From assembly GCA_029058745.1 (NCBI GenBank), contig JAIDXM010000022.1:1-64000 (forward strand): DNA of 64,000 nt. Direction: 5' to 3'. The translations under genes were made by a program, and so were the position numbers. Shown here one piece after another: positions 1-10,027 of this stretch (the stretch's first letter is position 1; each line of letters starts with the position of its first letter). The notes beneath the pieces are model-generated. The model was not told where the DNA came from and did not search any database. It was given only the letters and a program-made list of their open reading frames with translations. The stretch is from Muribaculaceae bacterium. Its GTDB lineage: Bacteria > Bacteroidota > Bacteroidia > Bacteroidales > Muribaculaceae.

Positions 1-45
1 CCCTAATCCTCGCCAGCGTCAGATTTTTTTAAGATACTGATCCAG

Positions 46-147
46 ATGAACCCGCAATTGCAACAACAAGTGCAGTCAGACCCGCAATTGCAACAGCAGA
101 TGCAGATGAACCCGCAATTGCAACAGCAAGCGCAGCCAGACCCGCAG
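46..147 (+). repeat. 30-nt tandem repeat (about 3.4 units) encoding [M/S/P][N/D]PQLQQQxQ
   Basis: Units atgaacccgcaattgcaacaacaagtgcag / tcagacccgcaattgcaacagcagatgcag / atgaacccgcaattgcaacagcaagcgcag / ccagacccgcag. Confidence 0.9.
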
Positions 148-1545
148 ATGCAGATGCCAACCCAACAGCAAATGTGGCAACAGCAGATGATGCAACAGCA
201 GATGCCGGGTTATCCTCCACAAATGCCCACAGGCAACAGGAGCATGTTCGGCAACAGCCAACAGCAGATGCAACAGCAAGCTCCGGCATGCCCCAACCTC
301 ATTCCCGACAATCCCTTCAGGGTGATTGATTACAAGCCAATGCGGCTTTTCTCTGACAGCGACCACAATTTCTCGCTCACGGAAGCCAATGCAGTGGCTA
401 ACTTCGTTTCACAAAAACAAGGAGACAGAGCCAAGAACCTTTATCTGTGTTTCGATATTGGCGGAAGCACCACCGACATATCCGCTCTATACAAACTCGA
501 CTCCGGATTGACAATGATTAAGCAGAACTCAATCCGTTTTGCGGCACAGAGAGTATCGGAGGCAACAAGGCATGTGGTAGGATTTGAGAAAGTACTCATG
601 CAGATATGCGAGAAATTCAATATCACAATCCTCGGTCTGAACCAAGGCGACCGTAGATTCTCATCAGAGACGGCGCCCTACTACTTCAACCAGATTGTTG
701 ACAAACTTGATGACAATCAATTGCCCGACTTCTACAAGATAATCGCAGCAGAATGCCCGCAACTTATGTGGATTAACATGTATGTCACAGGGCTTCTTCT
801 CTTCTATGCCGGACAGATTGCCAGCAAGCTTGTGGACGACATCGCCCATACGAACTGGAGCGAACTCGCCCCAATCAACAACACCTCTCCGAAAGTGACA
901 GTTGTTTTCGCAGGTAAAGGCTCGCGTCTTCTCCAATGGCTAACGACTACAAAAGGAGATGCCGGGAAGGACTACTACAACCAGCTGTTTGAGGAAGGGT
1001 ATGTTGGAGAGCGTCAGATATTCCCCCCTATTGAAAGTCTTGAGATTGAATATCCCACAATCGACAATTCTCAGGATATAAAATATGAGGTATCGAAAGG
1101 TTTGGCAAAAAGCGCCACACAATTGTGCAATCCGGCAGATGACACCCCAAGCGAGATTATCGGTGAGTCTGGATTCTCCGTAAGGTCGCTCGACGGCAAT
1201 ATATATCCAGTGGAATATGTGAATTCCATTACCCCGGAGATGATGGAATGGATTGGAAACCTCTTCAATCCGGACGATTCCGCACCTTGTGGCAAGTTCT
1301 TCCAGTTCTGCAACATATTCTATGGCGCGGCGCAACAGTTCTTCGACATGAAAGTGTCGCAGGAGGTGTTTATGGAAGGATTCAGGAAGATGAATATCGT
1401 GCAATACGTGCAGAACCTTCCCGAATTTGTGGAGGCTAAACGCGACAAGAACAAGAAAAACGGAAAGTTTGATTTCGTCGCCCCGATCATCATTCTGGAG
1501 GGGATGAAATTCTACGACGACTATCTGCTGAAATCTTTAAGATGA
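46..1545 (+). CDS. Hsp70/actin-like ATPase-fold protein, Gln-rich N-terminus; probably the C-terminal part of a longer gene
   Basis: LYLCFDIGGSTTDIS resembles the phosphate-2 motif of Hsp70/actin folds; VVFAGKGSRLLQWL resembles the adenosine motif; no phosphate-1 motif in the ORF; stop overlaps the next ATG (ATGA). Confidence 0.65.
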   Translation: MNPQLQQQVQSDPQLQQQMQMNPQLQQQAQPDPQMQMPTQQQMWQQQMMQQQMPGYPPQMPTGNRSMFGNSQQQMQQQAPACPNLIPDNPFRVIDYKPMRLFSDSDHNFSLTEANAVANFVSQKQGDRAKNLYLCFDIGGSTTDISALYKLDSGLTMIKQNSIRFAAQRVSEATRHVVGFEKVLMQICEKFNITILGLNQGDRRFSSETAPYYFNQIVDKLDDNQLPDFYKIIAAECPQLMWINMYVTGLLLFYAGQIASKLVDDIAHTNWSELAPINNTSPKVTVVFAGKGSRLLQWLTTTKGDAGKDYYNQLFEEGYVGERQIFPPIESLEIEYPTIDNSQDIKYEVSKGLAKSATQLCNPADDTPSEIIGESGFSVRSLDGNIYPVEYVNSITPEMMEWIGNLFNPDDSAPCGKFFQFCNIFYGAAQQFFDMKVSQEVFMEGFRKMNIVQYVQNLPEFVEAKRDKNKKNGKFDFVAPIIILEGMKFYDDYLLKSLR

Positions 1546-2954
1546 GCATACCATTTATCATAATCAACCTGTCGGGGAAATTCATTTCCCTGGAATATTT
1601 ACGCGAGGGGGGGACTGCTGTCCCCTCCCCTTTCCCTCGCGGGAACTGGCCGATGCCGCTGTCGCAGTTTTCCAGACGGCTACTCACCGGCTATGACTCC
1701 AATTTCGTGTTCGACATCACGAAAAGAATCGGGGAGCTTCTTGAGGACTCTTTCACCGAAGCCGGTGAACTCGAATCCCTGAAAGGTTCTCTCCCTATTC
1801 TCTTCATGATTGAAAACGACGTGACGGACAATGATGCCGACTCGATAAAAGAGAATTTCAACAAATTGGGGTTCGCGAATGTCAGCACCCTTCGCCGCGA
1901 CATGGCCATCGCCGATTACTATGCCCGCGACTACAGACCCGAGGGGGTGGTCACGGCAAGCTCCGACGGCAAAGACCTTTTCATATCCCTTTCTCTCCAC
2001 TCTCAGTCGGGAGCCGTGGCGCGAAAGACATTACCTGGTGAAGCCTGCGACCCGAGGGCAGAAGACCTCGCCAACAAAATATGGGAACAGGTGCGCGACT
2101 ATACCATCGACCTCCACCGGGAGAATGAGACAGCGGCTCTCACCAAAGCGGCTCTTGATTATCTGAAAAGCGGAAAATCGGAATTGGAAGGGTGCGTGAG
2201 GCTTTCAGATGGCGCGGAATATGACTATTTCGTCAACCGCTCGATGGTAAACAACGAAGGGACAAGACAGCTCCAGACAAAAATCACGGAGTTCCTGACA
2301 GAGTTCGGGCTCGCTGACAGGAGCCGCAGTGTAATAGTGCTTTGCGGAGAAGCCATCTCCAGCAACTACATCCGGCAGTCGCTGACCCCGGGATTCGGAG
2401 AGGTGGCCACTCTCGACGGACATCTGCGCGACGCAATCTTGCGTCTCGCCACAAATCTCTCCTCCTTTGCATGGAAAGAAACTGCATTAGACAAACCCGT
2501 CGCCCCTCCGGAAAAACCATCTCCCCGTAAGCCGGAATACACGCAACCGAAGCCTTACACCCGGCAACCGGCGGAACCGGAGGAAGAACCGGAGACTACT
2601 GACTCCGAGGGTCTGATGCCTATTGAACTGGAGGCTTCCGTAGAGTCGGTCAAGGCCGGGTTCATGAAGAGGAAGAAGGTTCTGAAAATAAGGGTGACAT
2701 CGCCAATGGGAGGAAAGATTCCTTGGCACAGTGTGCTGTGTGTGCAGGAAAAACCGCTATCGACTATCGACATGCAGAATGTGGTGCAGGACTACGACCG
2801 TGGCGACAGGCTACCTTTCAGCCTCGAACTCGACTTGCCCCTGAAACAGTGTCCCGACGCGAAACGGCTCAGGATTTATTTCAAACCTCATCCCGACGAA
2901 CCGGTGGGCATCAACAATGCATACGAGGTGGCTCCACTCACTGTCAACCTATGA
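1542..2954 (+). CDS. Second, divergent Hsp70/actin-like fold protein of the GTPase operon
   Basis: 4-nt overlap with the previous CDS; SVIVLCGEAISSNYIRQSL resembles an adenosine-type motif; acidic/proline linker then a C-terminal beta-rich domain. Confidence 0.5.
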   Translation: MSIPFIIINLSGKFISLEYLREGGTAVPSPFPRGNWPMPLSQFSRRLLTGYDSNFVFDITKRIGELLEDSFTEAGELESLKGSLPILFMIENDVTDNDADSIKENFNKLGFANVSTLRRDMAIADYYARDYRPEGVVTASSDGKDLFISLSLHSQSGAVARKTLPGEACDPRAEDLANKIWEQVRDYTIDLHRENETAALTKAALDYLKSGKSELEGCVRLSDGAEYDYFVNRSMVNNEGTRQLQTKITEFLTEFGLADRSRSVIVLCGEAISSNYIRQSLTPGFGEVATLDGHLRDAILRLATNLSSFAWKETALDKPVAPPEKPSPRKPEYTQPKPYTRQPAEPEEEPETTDSEGLMPIELEASVESVKAGFMKRKKVLKIRVTSPMGGKIPWHSVLCVQEKPLSTIDMQNVVQDYDRGDRLPFSLELDLPLKQCPDAKRLRIYFKPHPDEPVGINNAYEVAPLTVNL

Positions 2955-2965
2955 TAAATACATTC

Positions 2966-2997
2966 GCAAATCGGAGAATACATTATCTCTGATTTGC
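2966..2997 (+). other. Intergenic hairpin (12-bp stem, one G-U, 8-nt loop) between operon genes 2 and 3
   Basis: GCAAATCGGAGA atacatta TCTCTGATTTGC. Confidence 0.6.
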
Positions 2998-3003
2998 AAC
3001 CAA

Positions 3004-3024
3004 ACATGCCGGAGGCATGTCCCC
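3004..3024 (-). repeat. REP-like 7-3-7 palindrome (copy A)
   Basis: Minus strand GGGGACATGCC TCC GGCATGT; matches copies at 40169, 40251, 40356 and 47379. Confidence 0.6.
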
Positions 3025-3071
3025 ACAACCGAGACATGCCTCCATTCTAAAAACAGTTAAAACCTAACATC

Positions 3072-4331
3072 ATGGCTTCAAAAAAAATACTTTGCCCCTA
3101 CTGCTTCGAGGAGTTTGAGAACACTCAGGCCTGGTATCAGTGTGAGAGCGAGGAACGCGACAATGACGGGGACTTCCGTTGCAAACGCGTCACGAGCGAC
3201 GAGTATGACAAATATTGGAAAGGGAAAGACCTCCTGATGCGTAATGTCTGGCAACAGAAGAGCGGATTCTTCGCACGCCTTTCGGGGCCTAAACTCAATG
3301 CCCAGAAATGCCCGCAATGCGGCTATAACTCACGTCGTTTCGTGTGTCCACACTGTTTCAACTGGCTTCCAACCGAAATGATTGAGAACGGTGCGGAGAT
3401 TATCTCTGTAATAGGTAGTCCTTCGAGCGGAAAGACAAATTATATTGTCGCACTTATCCATCAGCTGCGCAAATACGGCTACAAGATGAACCTGCAAGTA
3501 ATTCCAACGCAGCTTTATCGCGATGGTCATAAGGAAGAGTCAACCCAGAACCTTTTCAAAAGAATGGAGTCGCAACTTTTCACAGAAAAAACAGTCCTAC
3601 AGAAAACATCAAAGAAAACAAATGATATTCCGTGGATTTTTCATCTCTCTCAGCCAACTACAGGGAAGAGTATTTATCTCGTATTTTACGACACAGCCGG
3701 TGAAAAATTTACGGATGATATAAAAAATAACACGAAATATCTGAAGGAGTCATCAGCTGTCATATTGATTCTCGACACCTTGTCAATTAACTATATCAAA
3801 GAAATACTTACTAAAAAGGGGCTCCAAGACCTTGGAGGAGCAAGTGCAGACTACAAAGAAATACAAACGGCTCTCAACATGTTCAGAGGCCAATCGGGCG
3901 TTAAAATTGAAAACAAACCGTTTGCTTTTGTATTCAGTAAATTCGATGCCGTCATAGATCATAAGAATGATCTTGATTTTGCTGCCGATGAGTTTGTTAT
4001 CGGTGACAAGAAATCAGATAGCAGCTATATCAAGACAGGGATTCTAAACCTGTCGAAAATCGATTCAATTAGCGAATCTATTGAAGAAGCCCTCTTTGAA
4101 CAATGGGATATGGGAGCTTTGGCAAGTTATGCAAACAACTGGAGCGCGAAGCGTGGCATGCGCGACCCCAATAACCCTGCCAATAAATACAAGTTCTTCG
4201 GTGTCTCCGCCTTCGGCACTATGCCCGATGAGAACGGAGAGCTTGAGAAAGTGGAGCCTTATCGAGTGATGGACCCTCTTGTATGGATTCTCCATAAACT
4301 CGGTCAATTTGATATTCCAACTAAAAAATAA
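3072..4331 (+). CDS. Zinc-ribbon P-loop GTPase (double-GTPase/DO-GTPase2-like)
   Basis: CPYC...CPQCGYNSRRFVCPHC zinc ribbon; GSPSSGKTNY Walker A; LVFYDTAGE (DxxG); FVFSKFDAV (NKxD-like). Confidence 0.75.
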   Translation: MASKKILCPYCFEEFENTQAWYQCESEERDNDGDFRCKRVTSDEYDKYWKGKDLLMRNVWQQKSGFFARLSGPKLNAQKCPQCGYNSRRFVCPHCFNWLPTEMIENGAEIISVIGSPSSGKTNYIVALIHQLRKYGYKMNLQVIPTQLYRDGHKEESTQNLFKRMESQLFTEKTVLQKTSKKTNDIPWIFHLSQPTTGKSIYLVFYDTAGEKFTDDIKNNTKYLKESSAVILILDTLSINYIKEILTKKGLQDLGGASADYKEIQTALNMFRGQSGVKIENKPFAFVFSKFDAVIDHKNDLDFAADEFVIGDKKSDSSYIKTGILNLSKIDSISESIEEALFEQWDMGALASYANNWSAKRGMRDPNNPANKYKFFGVSAFGTMPDENGELEKVEPYRVMDPLVWILHKLGQFDIPTKK

Positions 4332-4339
4332 CCTACGCC

Positions 4340-6811
4340 ATGAGATACGCCCACGTAATTTACAACTCTTCTGAGAAGAGCCAGTCAGGAGCTGTCGGGT
4401 TCGGAGTGAGATGCACCACTGAAGGCACTCCCGTAGAACTGACAGAAGCCATGCAGGACAACGATATCTTCTCTTTCATTGAAGCAGGTCCTGCCCTGAC
4501 CCCGTCTGCACTTGCCGCCAATCCGGATGCAATCCGTCAGATTGTGCCGACATATTTCTTCAAGTCAATCCCTCTGCACGACAAAAGCCGCGCATTCGTG
4601 CTTGGCCGCAAGATTGCCGTGGGCTTCGACTACACTTTCTATCTCAACGGGAAACCGGGACGACTCGGCAACTACGTCGTGGATTCATACGTGTTCCCGC
4701 AACCTCCTACGGCCAGGGAATTCGAAATCCTGCTTGAGGACGCCGACTCCGGAAGCAACCACTTCATCCCGGTGTCACCCTCTCCCACTCCCGACAACCG
4801 TGAGATGATTGAGATTTCACTCGGCCACAAACCATATCTCCCAGTTGAGGAGAGACCTTTCACCTCTCGATCTATGGTTAGGGTGAGTCCGCAGGCTATC
4901 GAACTTCTCTTCTCATTCATACAAAGCAGGAAGGAGGGGAAACCTGTGCTCGTGAAAAGCGATGTCGCATCCCCGCCACGACTTATGGCCGAACTCGCCA
5001 AGCTTGTCCCGGAGAAACAGATTGAGAATCTGACGTTCCTGACAAACCACACGGATGAGGGGAAAAAACAGGGTATCAACATCATTTTCATCAACGAGTT
5101 TTATTCTTTCGAAGTCTTTAAAAAGCAATGGATATGGCTCGACCTTGAAAACGGGGACCGTTGCGAGAGTCCGGAGGCAACCCTGTTCCGCGATAAGGTG
5201 GCGGCATATGTGGCATCCGGGAACTTCGACGCGATACACAAACTCGTGGGGTGGTGCATGTCTGACATGTATGAGAAAGGGAAGGCCTTCCCGACTGAGA
5301 CACAGACACAGCTCTACAACTACATTTACAACTACGATGAATTCCGTCTCCCTCTCATGGCTTCCGACGCGAATCTTCGCAACACCCTCAACGATTATTT
5401 CAAGAGCAATCCGGAAGAGAAACGGAAGTTTGACAAATCGATGCAGGACTGGTTCGGAAATATAGCCGACATCAACGGACTATGGAAATGGATTGACTTT
5501 ATCCTCGCCGTAGGTCCCGTAGATTGTTCTCTCGCAATCAACACCAACCGCCCGGTTATCACCAACGAGATTTTCAAGTCGGCTGATAGCTTCAGCAATT
5601 TCCACAACCGTTTCAAGCCACGTTTCCGCGAGGTGCTGAAGTTTGTTGACAGCAACGCATTCAAGGAGCACGACTCCTTCCTTTCCGAGATGCCGAACGA
5701 CTGGGAAGCCCTCTATCCGCTTTTCTTTTCGGAAAGAGTAGCCGACCACAGGATGCTCGTGGAAAGGATGATTGCCGACAACATCGAGCCTTCGATGAGA
5801 AGCCGCATCGTTGCCAAGGAAATCAGGCCCCCGGAAGCATACATCAACACCCTGGTGGAGATTCTGAAGAATCAACCGGTCAGAAATGAATGGAAAGTGA
5901 CAAAAATTCTGGCTGAGGAACTCTCCAACCAGAACAGGGTGATTCCTGACTTCTTCATGCTTTTCCCCGGGAAAATAGAAGATGGAATCTATAACAGACT
6001 GTTCCACTGGCAACTACAGAATTTCTATCCCAAAGGTGCGGCCGATGCCAGAAAGCTTGCTGACTACCTCATCAGGTTCCAGCGCAACGACATGGCAATG
6101 ACCCTTAACGGCTCCAATGTATTCACCCGCCTCTACTCGGCCATAAAGGAAGCCGTGAAGCGCAAGGAGATGACACGCGACGATGCCGTAAGGATATGCC
6201 GCGCCATGTTCCAGTCTTCTTACGATGCGGCAACCACCAGTCCGTTCCGCCTTCTCGACAAAGTGCTGTGTCACGCCGACATTCACGGGGAGAACAGAGT
6301 GGAACAGATATGGGAAATCTCAAAAGAATTGGGCGACAGGCAGTATCTCGCCACTCTCATTCCTGCCTTCCTGGCAAGCAAAGAGGCGAGCGCTCCCAAG
6401 GAACTCGCAAAAATATGCGATTTCATACTCAAAAATTCCTTGATGTCGAGGGAAGCGCTCACCTCCCTCGCCAAGACCTCCCGAATGGGCAACGAATACT
6501 ATGTCGGGATTCTCCTGCATGACAACCTCAAGCCGCAGGAAGAGCTGGAATTTCTTGTCAACGATGCCGGGATGACCGACGAACAGGCCCTCAACTTCCT
6601 TGAACGCTATTTCCCGGACAGCCACAAGAAGATTCTGAAAAGCCGAAAACCATCGGTGTTCCAGAAAATGTCTGGAATGTTCAAAGGGATGTTCGGAAAG
6701 AAAACTGACACTCCTGAAGAAGACGACGAGGAAACGGATGACACGACAAACGATACCTCCTCTGCCAACGGCAGAAAAGGGAAGGATAATAACCGAAATA
6801 AAAAACACTGA
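4340..6811 (+). CDS. Large GTPase-associated protein (GAP1-like)
   Basis: N-terminus MRYAHVIYNSSEKSQSGAVGFGVRC resembles the GAP1-N family; lies between two GTPase genes; helical C-terminal half. Confidence 0.6.
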   Translation: MRYAHVIYNSSEKSQSGAVGFGVRCTTEGTPVELTEAMQDNDIFSFIEAGPALTPSALAANPDAIRQIVPTYFFKSIPLHDKSRAFVLGRKIAVGFDYTFYLNGKPGRLGNYVVDSYVFPQPPTAREFEILLEDADSGSNHFIPVSPSPTPDNREMIEISLGHKPYLPVEERPFTSRSMVRVSPQAIELLFSFIQSRKEGKPVLVKSDVASPPRLMAELAKLVPEKQIENLTFLTNHTDEGKKQGINIIFINEFYSFEVFKKQWIWLDLENGDRCESPEATLFRDKVAAYVASGNFDAIHKLVGWCMSDMYEKGKAFPTETQTQLYNYIYNYDEFRLPLMASDANLRNTLNDYFKSNPEEKRKFDKSMQDWFGNIADINGLWKWIDFILAVGPVDCSLAINTNRPVITNEIFKSADSFSNFHNRFKPRFREVLKFVDSNAFKEHDSFLSEMPNDWEALYPLFFSERVADHRMLVERMIADNIEPSMRSRIVAKEIRPPEAYINTLVEILKNQPVRNEWKVTKILAEELSNQNRVIPDFFMLFPGKIEDGIYNRLFHWQLQNFYPKGAADARKLADYLIRFQRNDMAMTLNGSNVFTRLYSAIKEAVKRKEMTRDDAVRICRAMFQSSYDAATTSPFRLLDKVLCHADIHGENRVEQIWEISKELGDRQYLATLIPAFLASKEASAPKELAKICDFILKNSLMSREALTSLAKTSRMGNEYYVGILLHDNLKPQEELEFLVNDAGMTDEQALNFLERYFPDSHKKILKSRKPSVFQKMSGMFKGMFGKKTDTPEEDDEETDDTTNDTSSANGRKGKDNNRNKKH

Positions 6812-6813
6812 CC

Positions 6814-8850
6814 ATGAAACGACTTCTGAACATTCTGATGCTGTTTCTCCTGGCGCTATCATTCTCGCCGGGAATTTCAGCCGCCGAATTCGGTGAACAT
6901 CCGGAAAGGTGCAGCCAACGATATGTGGTGACTCCCGGAAAGAAACTTAACGTGCGCACAAAACCCTCCACAAAAGGGAAGCTCATCTATCAGCTCCGTC
7001 CGGGAGACGTGGTGTATATCGACTCCTTGCGTGTCACCACAGCCGGAGGGTATGACTGGATATCAATCAACGACAGATGGGGCCAGGGATTCCCGCAGAC
7101 AGGCTACGTGACAAACCTCAACCGTTTCACTGCGGAGCCGAACCCTCTCTATGACCCTCCCACTGAGGAACAGATGAAAATCGAGGATGCCGTGGAGAGT
7201 TCGCAAGCCGTGGCCAAATGGATTATGCTTGCGCTCACAATCATATTCGCCATATGGTTCATATGGGCTTATTTCGCCAACGAAGGGAAGGAAAAGCTTA
7301 TCGGCTACAGGCTGTATGGAATGAGAAAGACATTCTTCTTCAACTCGCAACCCTACAAGTCGGTAATCTACATCACCCTGTTCCTCATGGCCGCCATCGC
7401 GGCATCGGTGGTGGCGCTTATGGCCATCGGCGGAGTGGTGTTCCTCTTTCTATGGATTGTCAAGATTCTGTGCTACGCGGTGGTATGGATTGGCATAATA
7501 CTCTGCATAGCATGCGCCATCGCCACTGTGTGCGGGGCTTTCGTGGCAGTCGTGGGTGTCCTTATAGGAGGCGCCATATGGTATTACGATGATAAAATCG
7601 AGAGTTTCGCGGAAGCATGCGCCGACACAGGGCTCAGGTTTTTCAACGAGTTCAACATCTTCGGATTCACCGTTGACCTATCAATACAGTATTGGCAGCC
7701 GGCTCTCATTGCGGTGGCCACTCCTATCGCCCTTTTCCTCGCACTTGCCGTGATATGGCTCCTCGCCGCAGGAGCGTTGATTCTGTTTGAGAAAATAATG
7801 ACCAAACGCTACAGCATCAAGCATCCGTGTCCCCACTGCCAGCAACCGTCGGAACCTGCCACCTACATGTCGAAGGGAGCCAACGGATATGAATATATCC
7901 CCAACGACATTCAGTTGCGTCCCGGAATGTATGGACTATTCCATATCACGCACCCCGTCACAGGAGAGAGGATGCCCACGATGATTCTCAACGGACGCGA
8001 CAAGATGCCGCGTGAATGTGCCAACTGCGGCAAGCGCATCCAGGCCGACGAGGGCACGGAACTGCATGTGGCAATGGTCGGAACAGCACAGTCTGGCAAG
8101 AGCACTCTCACCTACAGGATGATTGCCGAGATTTTCTCTCGCGCAGGGGCCGACAAGGTGGATTTCACTGACGCACGCAACACCATCAGAGATCGTGAGA
8201 TGGAAAAGAAAATCAAGTCAATCAGTAGTAAAGGATACATTTCCGATGATGATATGCCGGCGAAAACCGCAGTACAGGACACTGCCTCAACGCAGCTCAT
8301 CATCAAGAGAAACCACCTCCCGGTGCCTTACAGACTTTTCATCAACGATGTGGGCGGAGAGCTTTTCGACCCTGAACACAAGTCGCAGAAATCGGACGCG
8401 ACACGGTTTTTCCGCAACGTCGATTCCATTCTCATGATGATCGACCCTGTGACAACCGACCTCTCTGACTGCGACCCTTCCGACGATTTCAAGGAATGGG
8501 TGGAGAAATTCGACAAGGACGTGGCCGTGAAGCTACGTGTGAAAGACATCCAGGACACAATCGACAACCAGATTGACCAGCACGGCAACAAGCACAAGAG
8601 AATACATCTCAATATCGTGTTGCCGAAGAAGGACCTCGGATATATCCCGGACCACATCAGACATGACTCGCAGGAAGACCTGAAGAGATATATGACTGAG
8701 GAGATGGGACTCGGCGACCTGCTGAATTGGAGCAACAGGTTCGCATCAGTGTCATTCCACGCCATTGGGGCAATCTCAAAAGGTAAGGAGGCAAATATCA
8801 CCCCTCTTATCGATCATGTAATCGTGGGTCAGCTTGGCATAAAAATCTGA
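6814..8850 (+). CDS. SH3b, multi-TM, zinc-ribbon, P-loop GTPase membrane protein (DO-GTPase1-like)
   Basis: Signal peptide; YVVTPGKKLNVRTKPSTKGKLIYQLRPGD SH3b; several hydrophobic helices; CPHC...CANC; MVGTAQSGKSTLTY Walker A; LFINDVGGE. Confidence 0.75.
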   Translation: MKRLLNILMLFLLALSFSPGISAAEFGEHPERCSQRYVVTPGKKLNVRTKPSTKGKLIYQLRPGDVVYIDSLRVTTAGGYDWISINDRWGQGFPQTGYVTNLNRFTAEPNPLYDPPTEEQMKIEDAVESSQAVAKWIMLALTIIFAIWFIWAYFANEGKEKLIGYRLYGMRKTFFFNSQPYKSVIYITLFLMAAIAASVVALMAIGGVVFLFLWIVKILCYAVVWIGIILCIACAIATVCGAFVAVVGVLIGGAIWYYDDKIESFAEACADTGLRFFNEFNIFGFTVDLSIQYWQPALIAVATPIALFLALAVIWLLAAGALILFEKIMTKRYSIKHPCPHCQQPSEPATYMSKGANGYEYIPNDIQLRPGMYGLFHITHPVTGERMPTMILNGRDKMPRECANCGKRIQADEGTELHVAMVGTAQSGKSTLTYRMIAEIFSRAGADKVDFTDARNTIRDREMEKKIKSISSKGYISDDDMPAKTAVQDTASTQLIIKRNHLPVPYRLFINDVGGELFDPEHKSQKSDATRFFRNVDSILMMIDPVTTDLSDCDPSDDFKEWVEKFDKDVAVKLRVKDIQDTIDNQIDQHGNKHKRIHLNIVLPKKDLGYIPDHIRHDSQEDLKRYMTEEMGLGDLLNWSNRFASVSFHAIGAISKGKEANITPLIDHVIVGQLGIKI

Positions 8851-8886: not shown

Positions 8887-8921
8887 GGGGTCATATCATA
8901 ACCGGGTTATGATATGACCCC
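8887..8921 (+). terminator. Perfect 17-bp inverted repeat after the GTPase operon
   Basis: GGGGTCATATCATAACC G GGTTATGATATGACCCC. Confidence 0.65.
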
Positions 8922-8998: not shown

Positions 8999-10027
8999 AT
9001 GGCAGTAAACACCATATTCACCCGTTACCTCAAGGAGCTGAAGGTGCCACACACGGCATACTATTCCGATTCAATGTTCCACGGCATGACTTTCAAGTCG
9101 CTCTACGGTCTTTCGCATCTGCTGAAAACCTACGGGATAGATAACGAAGGAATGAGGTTGTCTGATAAAGACGAACTTACCAAGATGCCGGTTCCGTTTC
9201 TCGCGCAGACCAAAGACGGCATTTTCGTGATTGTAAAAGAAATCGCCCCCTCTAACAGCTCTGTAACCTACGACTCTCTGGGAGAAACTGAGACAATAGA
9301 CCTGGAGAGCTTCAAGAAAGGATGGAACGGGATAGCCCTTGTGGCCTTCCCTGATGAATCATCGCGTGAGCCTGACTATGCATCCCATCATCTCACCGAG
9401 ATTGTGTCGCGCATGTCGGGTTATCTGCTCGCGCTCTCCGCAATCGCTGTGTTCATCTACTTCTTTATCACCCGCCACGTATATTCCCACCTCTCCACAG
9501 TGCTGATAACGCTTCTCGACGGTGGCGGACTATATCTCTCATACCTTCTCCTCCAGAAATCTCTCAATATCCACACAGCCGCCTCCGACCGCGTGTGCGG
9601 TGTGCTGGAGAAAGGGGGATGCGACACGGTGATGTCGCTGAAAGTGTCGAAACTGTTCGGTGTCTTTTCCTGGAGCGAGGTAGGGTTCGGATATTTCAGT
9701 GTGTCGATGGCCACCCTCCTGCTGTTTCCGCATCTGTGGGGTTCACTCGCCCTCTGCAACCTATGCTGTCTCCCCTACACGTTCTGGAGCATATGGTACC
9801 AGAAATTCCGTGCCCGACACTGGTGCACACTGTGTGTAGGCGTACAGTCAACCCTCTGGCTACTCTTCTTCTGTTATCTTGCGGGAGGATGGTTTCACGC
9901 GGCGTTCCCGATTCATCCCGACATATGCATCCTCATCGCCGTATATGTGCTGTCGGTGCTCTTCTTAAATATGATTCTCCGAATATTCAAAAATCTCCCC
10001 ACCCATGAAAAAAATAACCATGCCTGA
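8999..10027 (+). CDS. VKOR-family disulfide oxidoreductase with an N-terminal C39-peptidase-like domain lacking the catalytic Cys
   Basis: CGVLEKGGCDTVM, LCNLCCLPYTFW and CTLC in a multi-TM domain; N-terminal half has C39-like layout without the N-terminal Cys. Confidence 0.75.
   Translation: MAVNTIFTRYLKELKVPHTAYYSDSMFHGMTFKSLYGLSHLLKTYGIDNEGMRLSDKDELTKMPVPFLAQTKDGIFVIVKEIAPSNSSVTYDSLGETETIDLESFKKGWNGIALVAFPDESSREPDYASHHLTEIVSRMSGYLLALSAIAVFIYFFITRHVYSHLSTVLITLLDGGGLYLSYLLLQKSLNIHTAASDRVCGVLEKGGCDTVMSLKVSKLFGVFSWSEVGFGYFSVSMATLLLFPHLWGSLALCNLCCLPYTFWSIWYQKFRARHWCTLCVGVQSTLWLLFFCYLAGGWFHAAFPIHPDICILIAVYVLSVLFLNMILRIFKNLPTHEKNNHA

What the first reader, a model, noticed from the sequence alone, without database searches (positions are those of the whole stretch)
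1..8850. Five-gene GTPase-centred operon: candidate signalling or conflict system
Tightly packed co-directional genes encode two Hsp70/actin-like proteins, a zinc-ribbon GTPase, a GAP1-like protein and an SH3b/TM/zinc-ribbon GTPase. Double-GTPase and GAP1-type families were defined by comparative genomics as parts of GTPase-centred bacterial conflict systems. I recall that description but have not checked it here. Pairing two GTPases with two Hsp70-like ATPases and a membrane sensor-like module is not a standard housekeeping set, and function is unproven.
Basis: partly seen in the sequence, partly recalled or inferred. Interest (0 to 1): 0.8.

Follow-up and report, generated by a model that had tools for sequence, protein, structure and literature searches.

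The report
Tubulin–Hsp70–GTPase envelope machine
The five genes are the second half of an eight-gene bacterial operon that joins a tubulin-like protein, two Hsp70/actin-like proteins and two membrane-linked GTPases, probably a switch-driven machine at the cell envelope that responds to damage or attack; both halves had been predicted separately before, but not joined in this form, and nobody has tested what it does.

Summary
The window begins at base 1 of contig C27. The gene continues on contig C72, and the break lies in a 30-bp Gln-coding tandem repeat. The whole operon has eight genes: vWA-like lipoprotein, small TM protein, tubulin-like protein (FtsZl1/Tubulin_2 type), giant Hsp70/actin-like ATPase (about 1,400 aa in relatives), a degenerate Hsp70-like protein, zinc-ribbon DO-GTPase, GAP1, and SH3b–TM–zinc-ribbon DO-GTPase. 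A strong terminator follows. All copies found in relatives keep this order. It is patchy within the genus (2 of 36 congeners plus this genome). The first four genes form a core that recurs across Bacteroidota and on cyanobacterial plasmids, with other partners: Zorya-like MotA/MotB, TerD or PP2C. The window's version combines the FtsZl1–vWA system (Makarova and Koonin 2010) with the DO-GTPase/GAP1 system (Kaur et al. 2020), where tubulin and HSP70 themes were described as non-overlapping. The Hsp70-like protein carries Gln-rich repeats in all four GTPase-type copies and in none of 26 others. Anatomy is secure. Function (envelope-sensing assembly switch, probably for conflict) is inferred. New variant of a known kind.

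The parts
1..45 (+). contig-start bases, in-frame TAA at 4-6; probably a contig-end artefact inside the split Hsp70-like gene
   Evidence: relatives have one uninterrupted ORF here
46..1545 (+). C-terminal part of the giant Hsp70/actin-like ATPase (phosphate-2 motif FDIGGSTTD, adenosine motif VFAGKGSRL); N-terminal 914 aa are on contig C72 (L004:3-2744:-)
50..204 (+). Gln-rich repeat insert (QMQMNPQLQQ-like, period 30 bp, then 15 bp) inside the Hsp70-like protein; six more copies at the start of contig C72
1542..2954 (+). second Hsp70/actin-fold protein, ATP-binding motifs not recognisable, with a C-terminal beta-rich domain
3072..4331 (+). DO-GTPase with N-terminal zinc ribbons (CPYC, CPQC, CPHC), P-loop GSPSSGKT, Walker B DTAGE
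4340..6811 (+). GAP1 (GAP1-M above cutoff; GAP1-N2 weak, in 2 of 4 family members)
6814..8850 (+). DO-GTPase with signal peptide, SH3b-like domain, hydrophobic segments (129-156, 181-258, 293-330), zinc ribbon, P-loop GTAQSGKS, Walker B DVGGE
8887..8921 (+). intrinsic terminator, 16-bp stem, likely end of the operon

Best explanation
This is a membrane-anchored, nucleotide-driven assembly system made of two joined modules. Module 1, the core, is a periplasmic vWA-like lipoprotein, a small inner-membrane protein, a tubulin-like GTPase (FtsZl1 type) and a giant Hsp70/actin-like ATPase. Module 2, the switch, is a degenerate Hsp70-like partner, a soluble zinc-ribbon DO-GTPase, GAP1, and a DO-GTPase tied through TM helices to a periplasmic SH3b domain. 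Proposed working: the vWA-like and SH3b parts report envelope or cell-wall disturbance, for example phage entry; the two GTPases pair and switch under GAP1 control; the GTP state drives assembly of the tubulin-like protein and the Gln-rich Hsp70-like ATPase at the inner membrane; the assembly remodels or seals the membrane, or contains the invader or stops the cell. Shown here: gene content, domains and folds, nucleotide-binding motifs, conserved order, partner exchange. Inferred: sensing, GTPase pairing, polymerisation, outcome.
For: Contig join and eight-gene order. DO-GTPase and GAP1-M above Pfam cutoffs. Tubulin-like family: 12 of 14 members match Tubulin_2, best E=3.2e-9; GGTG loop aligned to CetZ/FtsZ (E=0.03); E=2e-15 to a cyanobacterial plasmid protein, with another hit annotated as tubulin-like. 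Hsp70 folds: ORF2 and the giant ATPase family, with invariant phosphate-1, phosphate-2 and adenosine residues across 12 members. Envelope link: signal peptide, SH3b and TM on the second GTPase, lipobox on the vWA-like protein. Core reused with ZorB-like MotB (E=6.8e-13), TerD (4.3e-51) and PP2C (4.8e-16). Patchy: 2 of 36 congeners, core in 23 of 393 of the order. ORF2 and GAP1 are the most diverged in dN of the five.
Against: No experiment on any member was found. The window's operon is not beside defence genes; the window continues into carbohydrate-use genes. No PADLOC model fits any component convincingly. No recognised toxin or effector domain. No FNIII component. The vWA call is motif-level, with an imperfect MIDAS (DFSDG). 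Operon divergence ranks like that of metG among the four genomes, so recent horizontal transfer is not shown.
Confidence: 0.5

Rival explanations
1. Membrane remodelling or vesicle-forming machinery without a role in conflict, as first proposed for FtsZl1 systems: the tubulin-like protein shapes the inner membrane, with vWA and GTPase partners.
For: Makarova and Koonin predicted this for FtsZl1 with vWA, a diverged GTPase and OmpA partners. The core occurs in about 3-6% of sampled genomes over a wide range, and also in Cyanobacteria, with envelope-facing partners.
Against: Sparse, patchy presence and partner exchange, including ZorB-like proteins, fit an accessory system better than basic cell biology.
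Confidence: 0.25
2. Envelope-stress signalling system: the SH3b-linked GTPase senses peptidoglycan state and the other parts are a chaperone-like response.
For: SH3b and TM on the second GTPase. A paper on the phage shock response links DO-GTPases to membrane stress. MotB/OmpA-like and SH3 partners in related loci.
Against: No regulator gene was recognised in the operon, and a tubulin-like protein plus two Hsp70 folds is more than signalling needs.
Confidence: 0.2
3. Chance neighbours or a decaying gene set of no joint function.
For: ORF1 appears broken at the window start; 117-bp gap between ORF2 and ORF3.
Against: Same order in four genomes with about 42-76% protein identity for ORF2-ORF5 and pN well below pS; the break is most simply an assembly break in a repeat.
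Confidence: 0.02

Closest known systems
GAP1-N2-type DO-GTPase conflict systems (Kaur et al. 2020, PMC7159879)
   Same: Two DO-GTPases, one with two zinc ribbons, one with TM and SH3; GAP1 next to a DO-GTPase; tubulin, HSP70 and vWA partners.
   Different: Tubulin and Hsp70-like proteins are in one operon, whereas Kaur et al. describe tubulin and HSP70 themes of GAP1-N2 systems as non-overlapping; found in Bacteroidota, not listed there among the main GAP1-N2 phyla; no FNIII or GrpE found; Gln-rich repeat insert.
FtsZl1-vWA membrane-remodelling system (Makarova and Koonin 2010, PMC2875224)
   Same: FtsZ-like protein of Tubulin_2 type next to a vWA-like protein and a diverged zinc-ribbon GTPase; patchy, wide distribution; Bacteroides caccae is named among the species in their alignment.
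   Different: Their main text does not mention Hsp70 or DnaK; here an Hsp70/actin-like ATPase is the fixed neighbour of the tubulin, in Bacteroidota and Cyanobacteria.
Zorya (ZorA/ZorB motor)
   Same: The same four-gene core is followed by ZorB-like MotB and MotA-like genes in other Bacteroidota.
   Different: No MotA/MotB in the window's operon; ZorC, ZorD and ZorE were not looked for.
Hsp70/DnaK and MreB
   Same: Fold of the ATPase domain and its phosphate motifs.
   Different: Large N-terminal domain of unknown fold, no substrate-binding domain recognised, Gln-rich insert, second copy without recognisable ATP motifs.

Membership tests
GAP1-N2-type DO-GTPase system | DO-GTPase with conserved glutamate in Walker B, often in two paralogous copies | tested here: met
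   DTAGE and DVGGE; DO-GTPase1/2 above Pfam cutoff
GAP1-N2-type DO-GTPase system | GAP1 with N, M and C domains, N2 type | tested here: inconclusive
   GAP1-M above cutoff; GAP1-N2 in 2 of 4 family members, best E=0.0018; GAP1-C not detected
GAP1-N2-type DO-GTPase system | one GTPase with two zinc ribbons, the other with TM and SH3-like domain | tested here: met
   number of TM helices is from hydropathy only; SH3_3 match is below Pfam's cutoff
GAP1-N2-type DO-GTPase system | FNIII-repeat protein | tested here: not met
   no fibronectin match in Pfam for any protein scanned; the beta-rich end of ORF2 has low model confidence. Hence classed as a variant, not a plain member
FtsZl1-vWA system | FtsZ-like protein with GTP-binding loop, Tubulin_2 type | tested here: met
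   FGGTGAS loop; own protein 21.2 bits, below the 27 cutoff, but 12 of 14 family members match, best E=3.2e-9
FtsZl1-vWA system | neighbouring vWA protein with MIDAS DxSxS | tested here: inconclusive
   conserved lipoprotein upstream with DFSDG; no Pfam vWA match
FtsZl1-vWA system | coiled coil and helical C-terminal domain | not tested
   not examined
Zorya | ZorA/ZorB motor pair in the operon | tested here: not met
   none in the window operon; present beside related cores
Hsp70 chaperone | nucleotide-binding domain plus substrate-binding domain, GrpE/DnaJ helpers | tested here: not met
   NBD fold met; substrate-binding domain and GrpE/DnaJ not found
anti-phage defence system | protects cells from phage | not testable with these tools
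   needs experiment

The most novel reading that the evidence does not exclude
The vWA-small TM-tubulin-Hsp70-like set is an old, exchangeable assembly core that different defence or stress switches plug into (DO-GTPase/GAP1 with a Gln-rich Hsp70-like protein here; ZorA/ZorB-like motors, TerD or PP2C elsewhere), linking Zorya-type and GAP1-type systems to one cytoskeletal effector.
Probability: 0.3. Interest if true: 0.8.

Novelty: new variant of a known kind. Interest (0 to 1): 0.55.

Why it matters
It joins two separately predicted and, as far as I found, untested systems in one operon, names Hsp70/actin-like ATPases as the fixed partner of FtsZl1-type tubulins, and ties that core to ZorB-like genes. 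It gives a defined gene set for asking whether bacterial tubulin and Hsp70-fold proteins act together in defence or membrane repair.

Tried and rejected
Sequence search of solved structures gave nothing useful for ORF2, GAP1, the narrow tubulin profile or the Hsp70 alignment, where only repeat-driven hits appeared. PADLOC and NCBIfam gave no convincing family for the operon's proteins. A single genome-contig scan with GAP1 found one relative. GAP1 found only this genome in a 396-genome phylum sample. No GAP1 relative in plasmids or viral contigs and no tubulin relative in phages. I looked for a conserved empty site beside metG, which abuts the operon in two relatives; upstream neighbours differ among the congeners, so there is no clean site. 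The VKOR/C39 gene at 8999 was rejected as an operon member: it lies beyond the terminator and is absent from the relatives' loci. The model of the giant Hsp70-like family has low confidence (mean pLDDT 51.5); only its match to Hsp70 ATPase domains, backed by conserved motifs, is used.

Full report
Observation. Pfam supports DO-GTPase for ORF3 and ORF5 and GAP1-M for ORF4 above curated cutoffs; ORF1 and ORF2 have no significant Pfam family. ORF2 was modelled (mean pLDDT 66; its first 290 residues mostly about 70-85), and its best structural matches are DnaK and MreB (best E=7.5e-10, probability 1.00, TM about 0.4-0.5). ORF2 shows no recognisable ATP-phosphate motifs in its alignment, so I read it as a degenerate partner.

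The operon is cut. The window is contig C27 from base 1, and repeats at its start also occur at the start of contig C72 on the other strand. On C72, reading towards the break, lie a vWA-like lipoprotein gene (L004:4888-6372), a small TM gene (4440-4778), a tubulin-like gene (2751-4424) and the first 914 codons of the Hsp70-like gene. The break falls in a 30-bp repeat: 6.2 copies on C72, 3.2 in the window. In relatives the gene is one ORF of 1,379 and 1,480 codons. Bases 1-45 contain an in-frame stop, and bases 8-39 occur nowhere else in the genome; I take this stretch as a contig-end artefact, but this is not proven. The join itself is inferred from the shared repeat and the relatives' gene order. 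The operon ends at a terminator with a 16-bp stem, 8887-8921.

Conservation. Two of 36 congeners carry GAP1, and one further genome came from a public scan (L011, labelled Bacteroides sp.). All three keep the order, as far as their contigs reach: vWA-like (L011), tubulin (L010, L011), Hsp70-like, ORF2, DO-GTPase, GAP1, DO-GTPase. L009, L010 and L011 are cut by their contigs upstream. Identities range from 42% (GAP1, ORF2) to 76% (DO-GTPase 1). Changes at nonsynonymous sites (pN 0.15-0.37) are far below synonymous ones (pS 0.73-0.85); synonymous sites are near saturation, so only the direction is used. The ranking of relatedness follows metG (G027 and G000 85% and 84% identical to L011's, G006 76%), so old presence with losses fits as well as transfer.

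The wider family. The tubulin profile finds 13 of 396 genomes in a phylum sample and, with a broader profile, 23 of 393 in the order. Around them the order vWA-like, small TM, tubulin, Hsp70-like recurs, followed by other genes: MotA/MotB-like in most, two unnamed families in others, ORF2 plus three TerD genes in one, PP2C or no recognised partner elsewhere. The MotB-like proteins match Zorya ZorB models (E=6.8e-13 and 7.7e-11) and one MotA-like protein matches ZorA weakly (3.5e-5). In a tubulin tree the GTPase-type copies are one clade (100/99) whose sister is the TerD-type copy (100/100), apart from the MotA/MotB group; the root is a midpoint and one row is very long. Cyanobacterial plasmids hold the same core: tubulin E=2e-72 and 5e-70, Hsp70-like E=4.7e-58 and 6.3e-45, vWA-like E=7.4e-11.

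Hsp70-like ATPase and its insert. Across 12 members the phosphate-1, phosphate-2 and adenosine residues are invariant or nearly so. The model of one member is weak (mean pLDDT 51.5), but all 50 listed structural matches are Hsp70-type proteins or complexes that include one. Gln-rich stretches (33-50% Gln over 60 residues) occur in all four GTPase-type proteins and in none of 26 others, some of them contig fragments (at most 17%). The repeats differ in sequence and in position between members, so composition rather than sequence seems to be kept. The four form one clade, so this is one evolutionary association.

Reading. The second GTPase has a signal peptide, an SH3b-like domain and long hydrophobic segments before its zinc ribbon and GTPase domain; the vWA-like protein has a lipobox. 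This puts sensors outside and nucleotide switches inside. I propose a GTPase-controlled assembly of tubulin-like and Hsp70-like proteins at the inner membrane. The literature offers two predictions: conflict (Kaur et al. 2020) and membrane remodelling (Makarova and Koonin 2010). Patchiness and partner exchange favour conflict modestly. No experimental study of FtsZl1 or DO-GTPase/GAP1 operons turned up in the library searched; that library is not complete.

Membership. It meets the DO-GTPase features, meets GAP1 in part, and lacks a detectable FNIII protein, so I call it a variant of the GAP1-N2-type systems. The tubulin meets the Tubulin_2/FtsZl1 features at family level. It is not Zorya, because the motor genes are absent.

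Noticed in passing
window 8999-10027: Membrane protein with a C39-peptidase-like part and a VKOR domain, beyond the operon's terminator; possibly disulphide or peptide-maturation related.
   Followed up: no
window 10193-63999: Mostly minus-strand secreted enzymes and SusC/SusD-like and regulator-like genes, read by eye as carbohydrate-use clusters; not tested with profiles.
   Followed up: no
window 2955-3071: 117-bp gap between ORF2 and the first GTPase with palindromic stretches; the gap is about 10-53 bp in relatives. Could hold an internal signal.
   Followed up: no
L031, L035, L037, L039, L064, L065, L067, L068, L073, L075, L076: The same vWA-small TM-tubulin-Hsp70-like core followed by ZorA/ZorB-like genes.
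   Followed up: partly
L029 4172-6063: Three TerD genes and ORF2 follow the core in place of the GTPases.
   Followed up: partly
L091, L092: Core genes on cyanobacterial plasmids, one typed as mobilizable, annotated mostly as hypothetical.
   Followed up: partly
L009 (G027 contig C306): This contig also ends in the Gln-rich repeat, so the repeat breaks assemblies in two genomes.
   Followed up: no
L011: Record is labelled Bacteroides sp., but its metG is as close to this genome's as to that of a congener, so it may belong to the window's genus.
   Followed up: no
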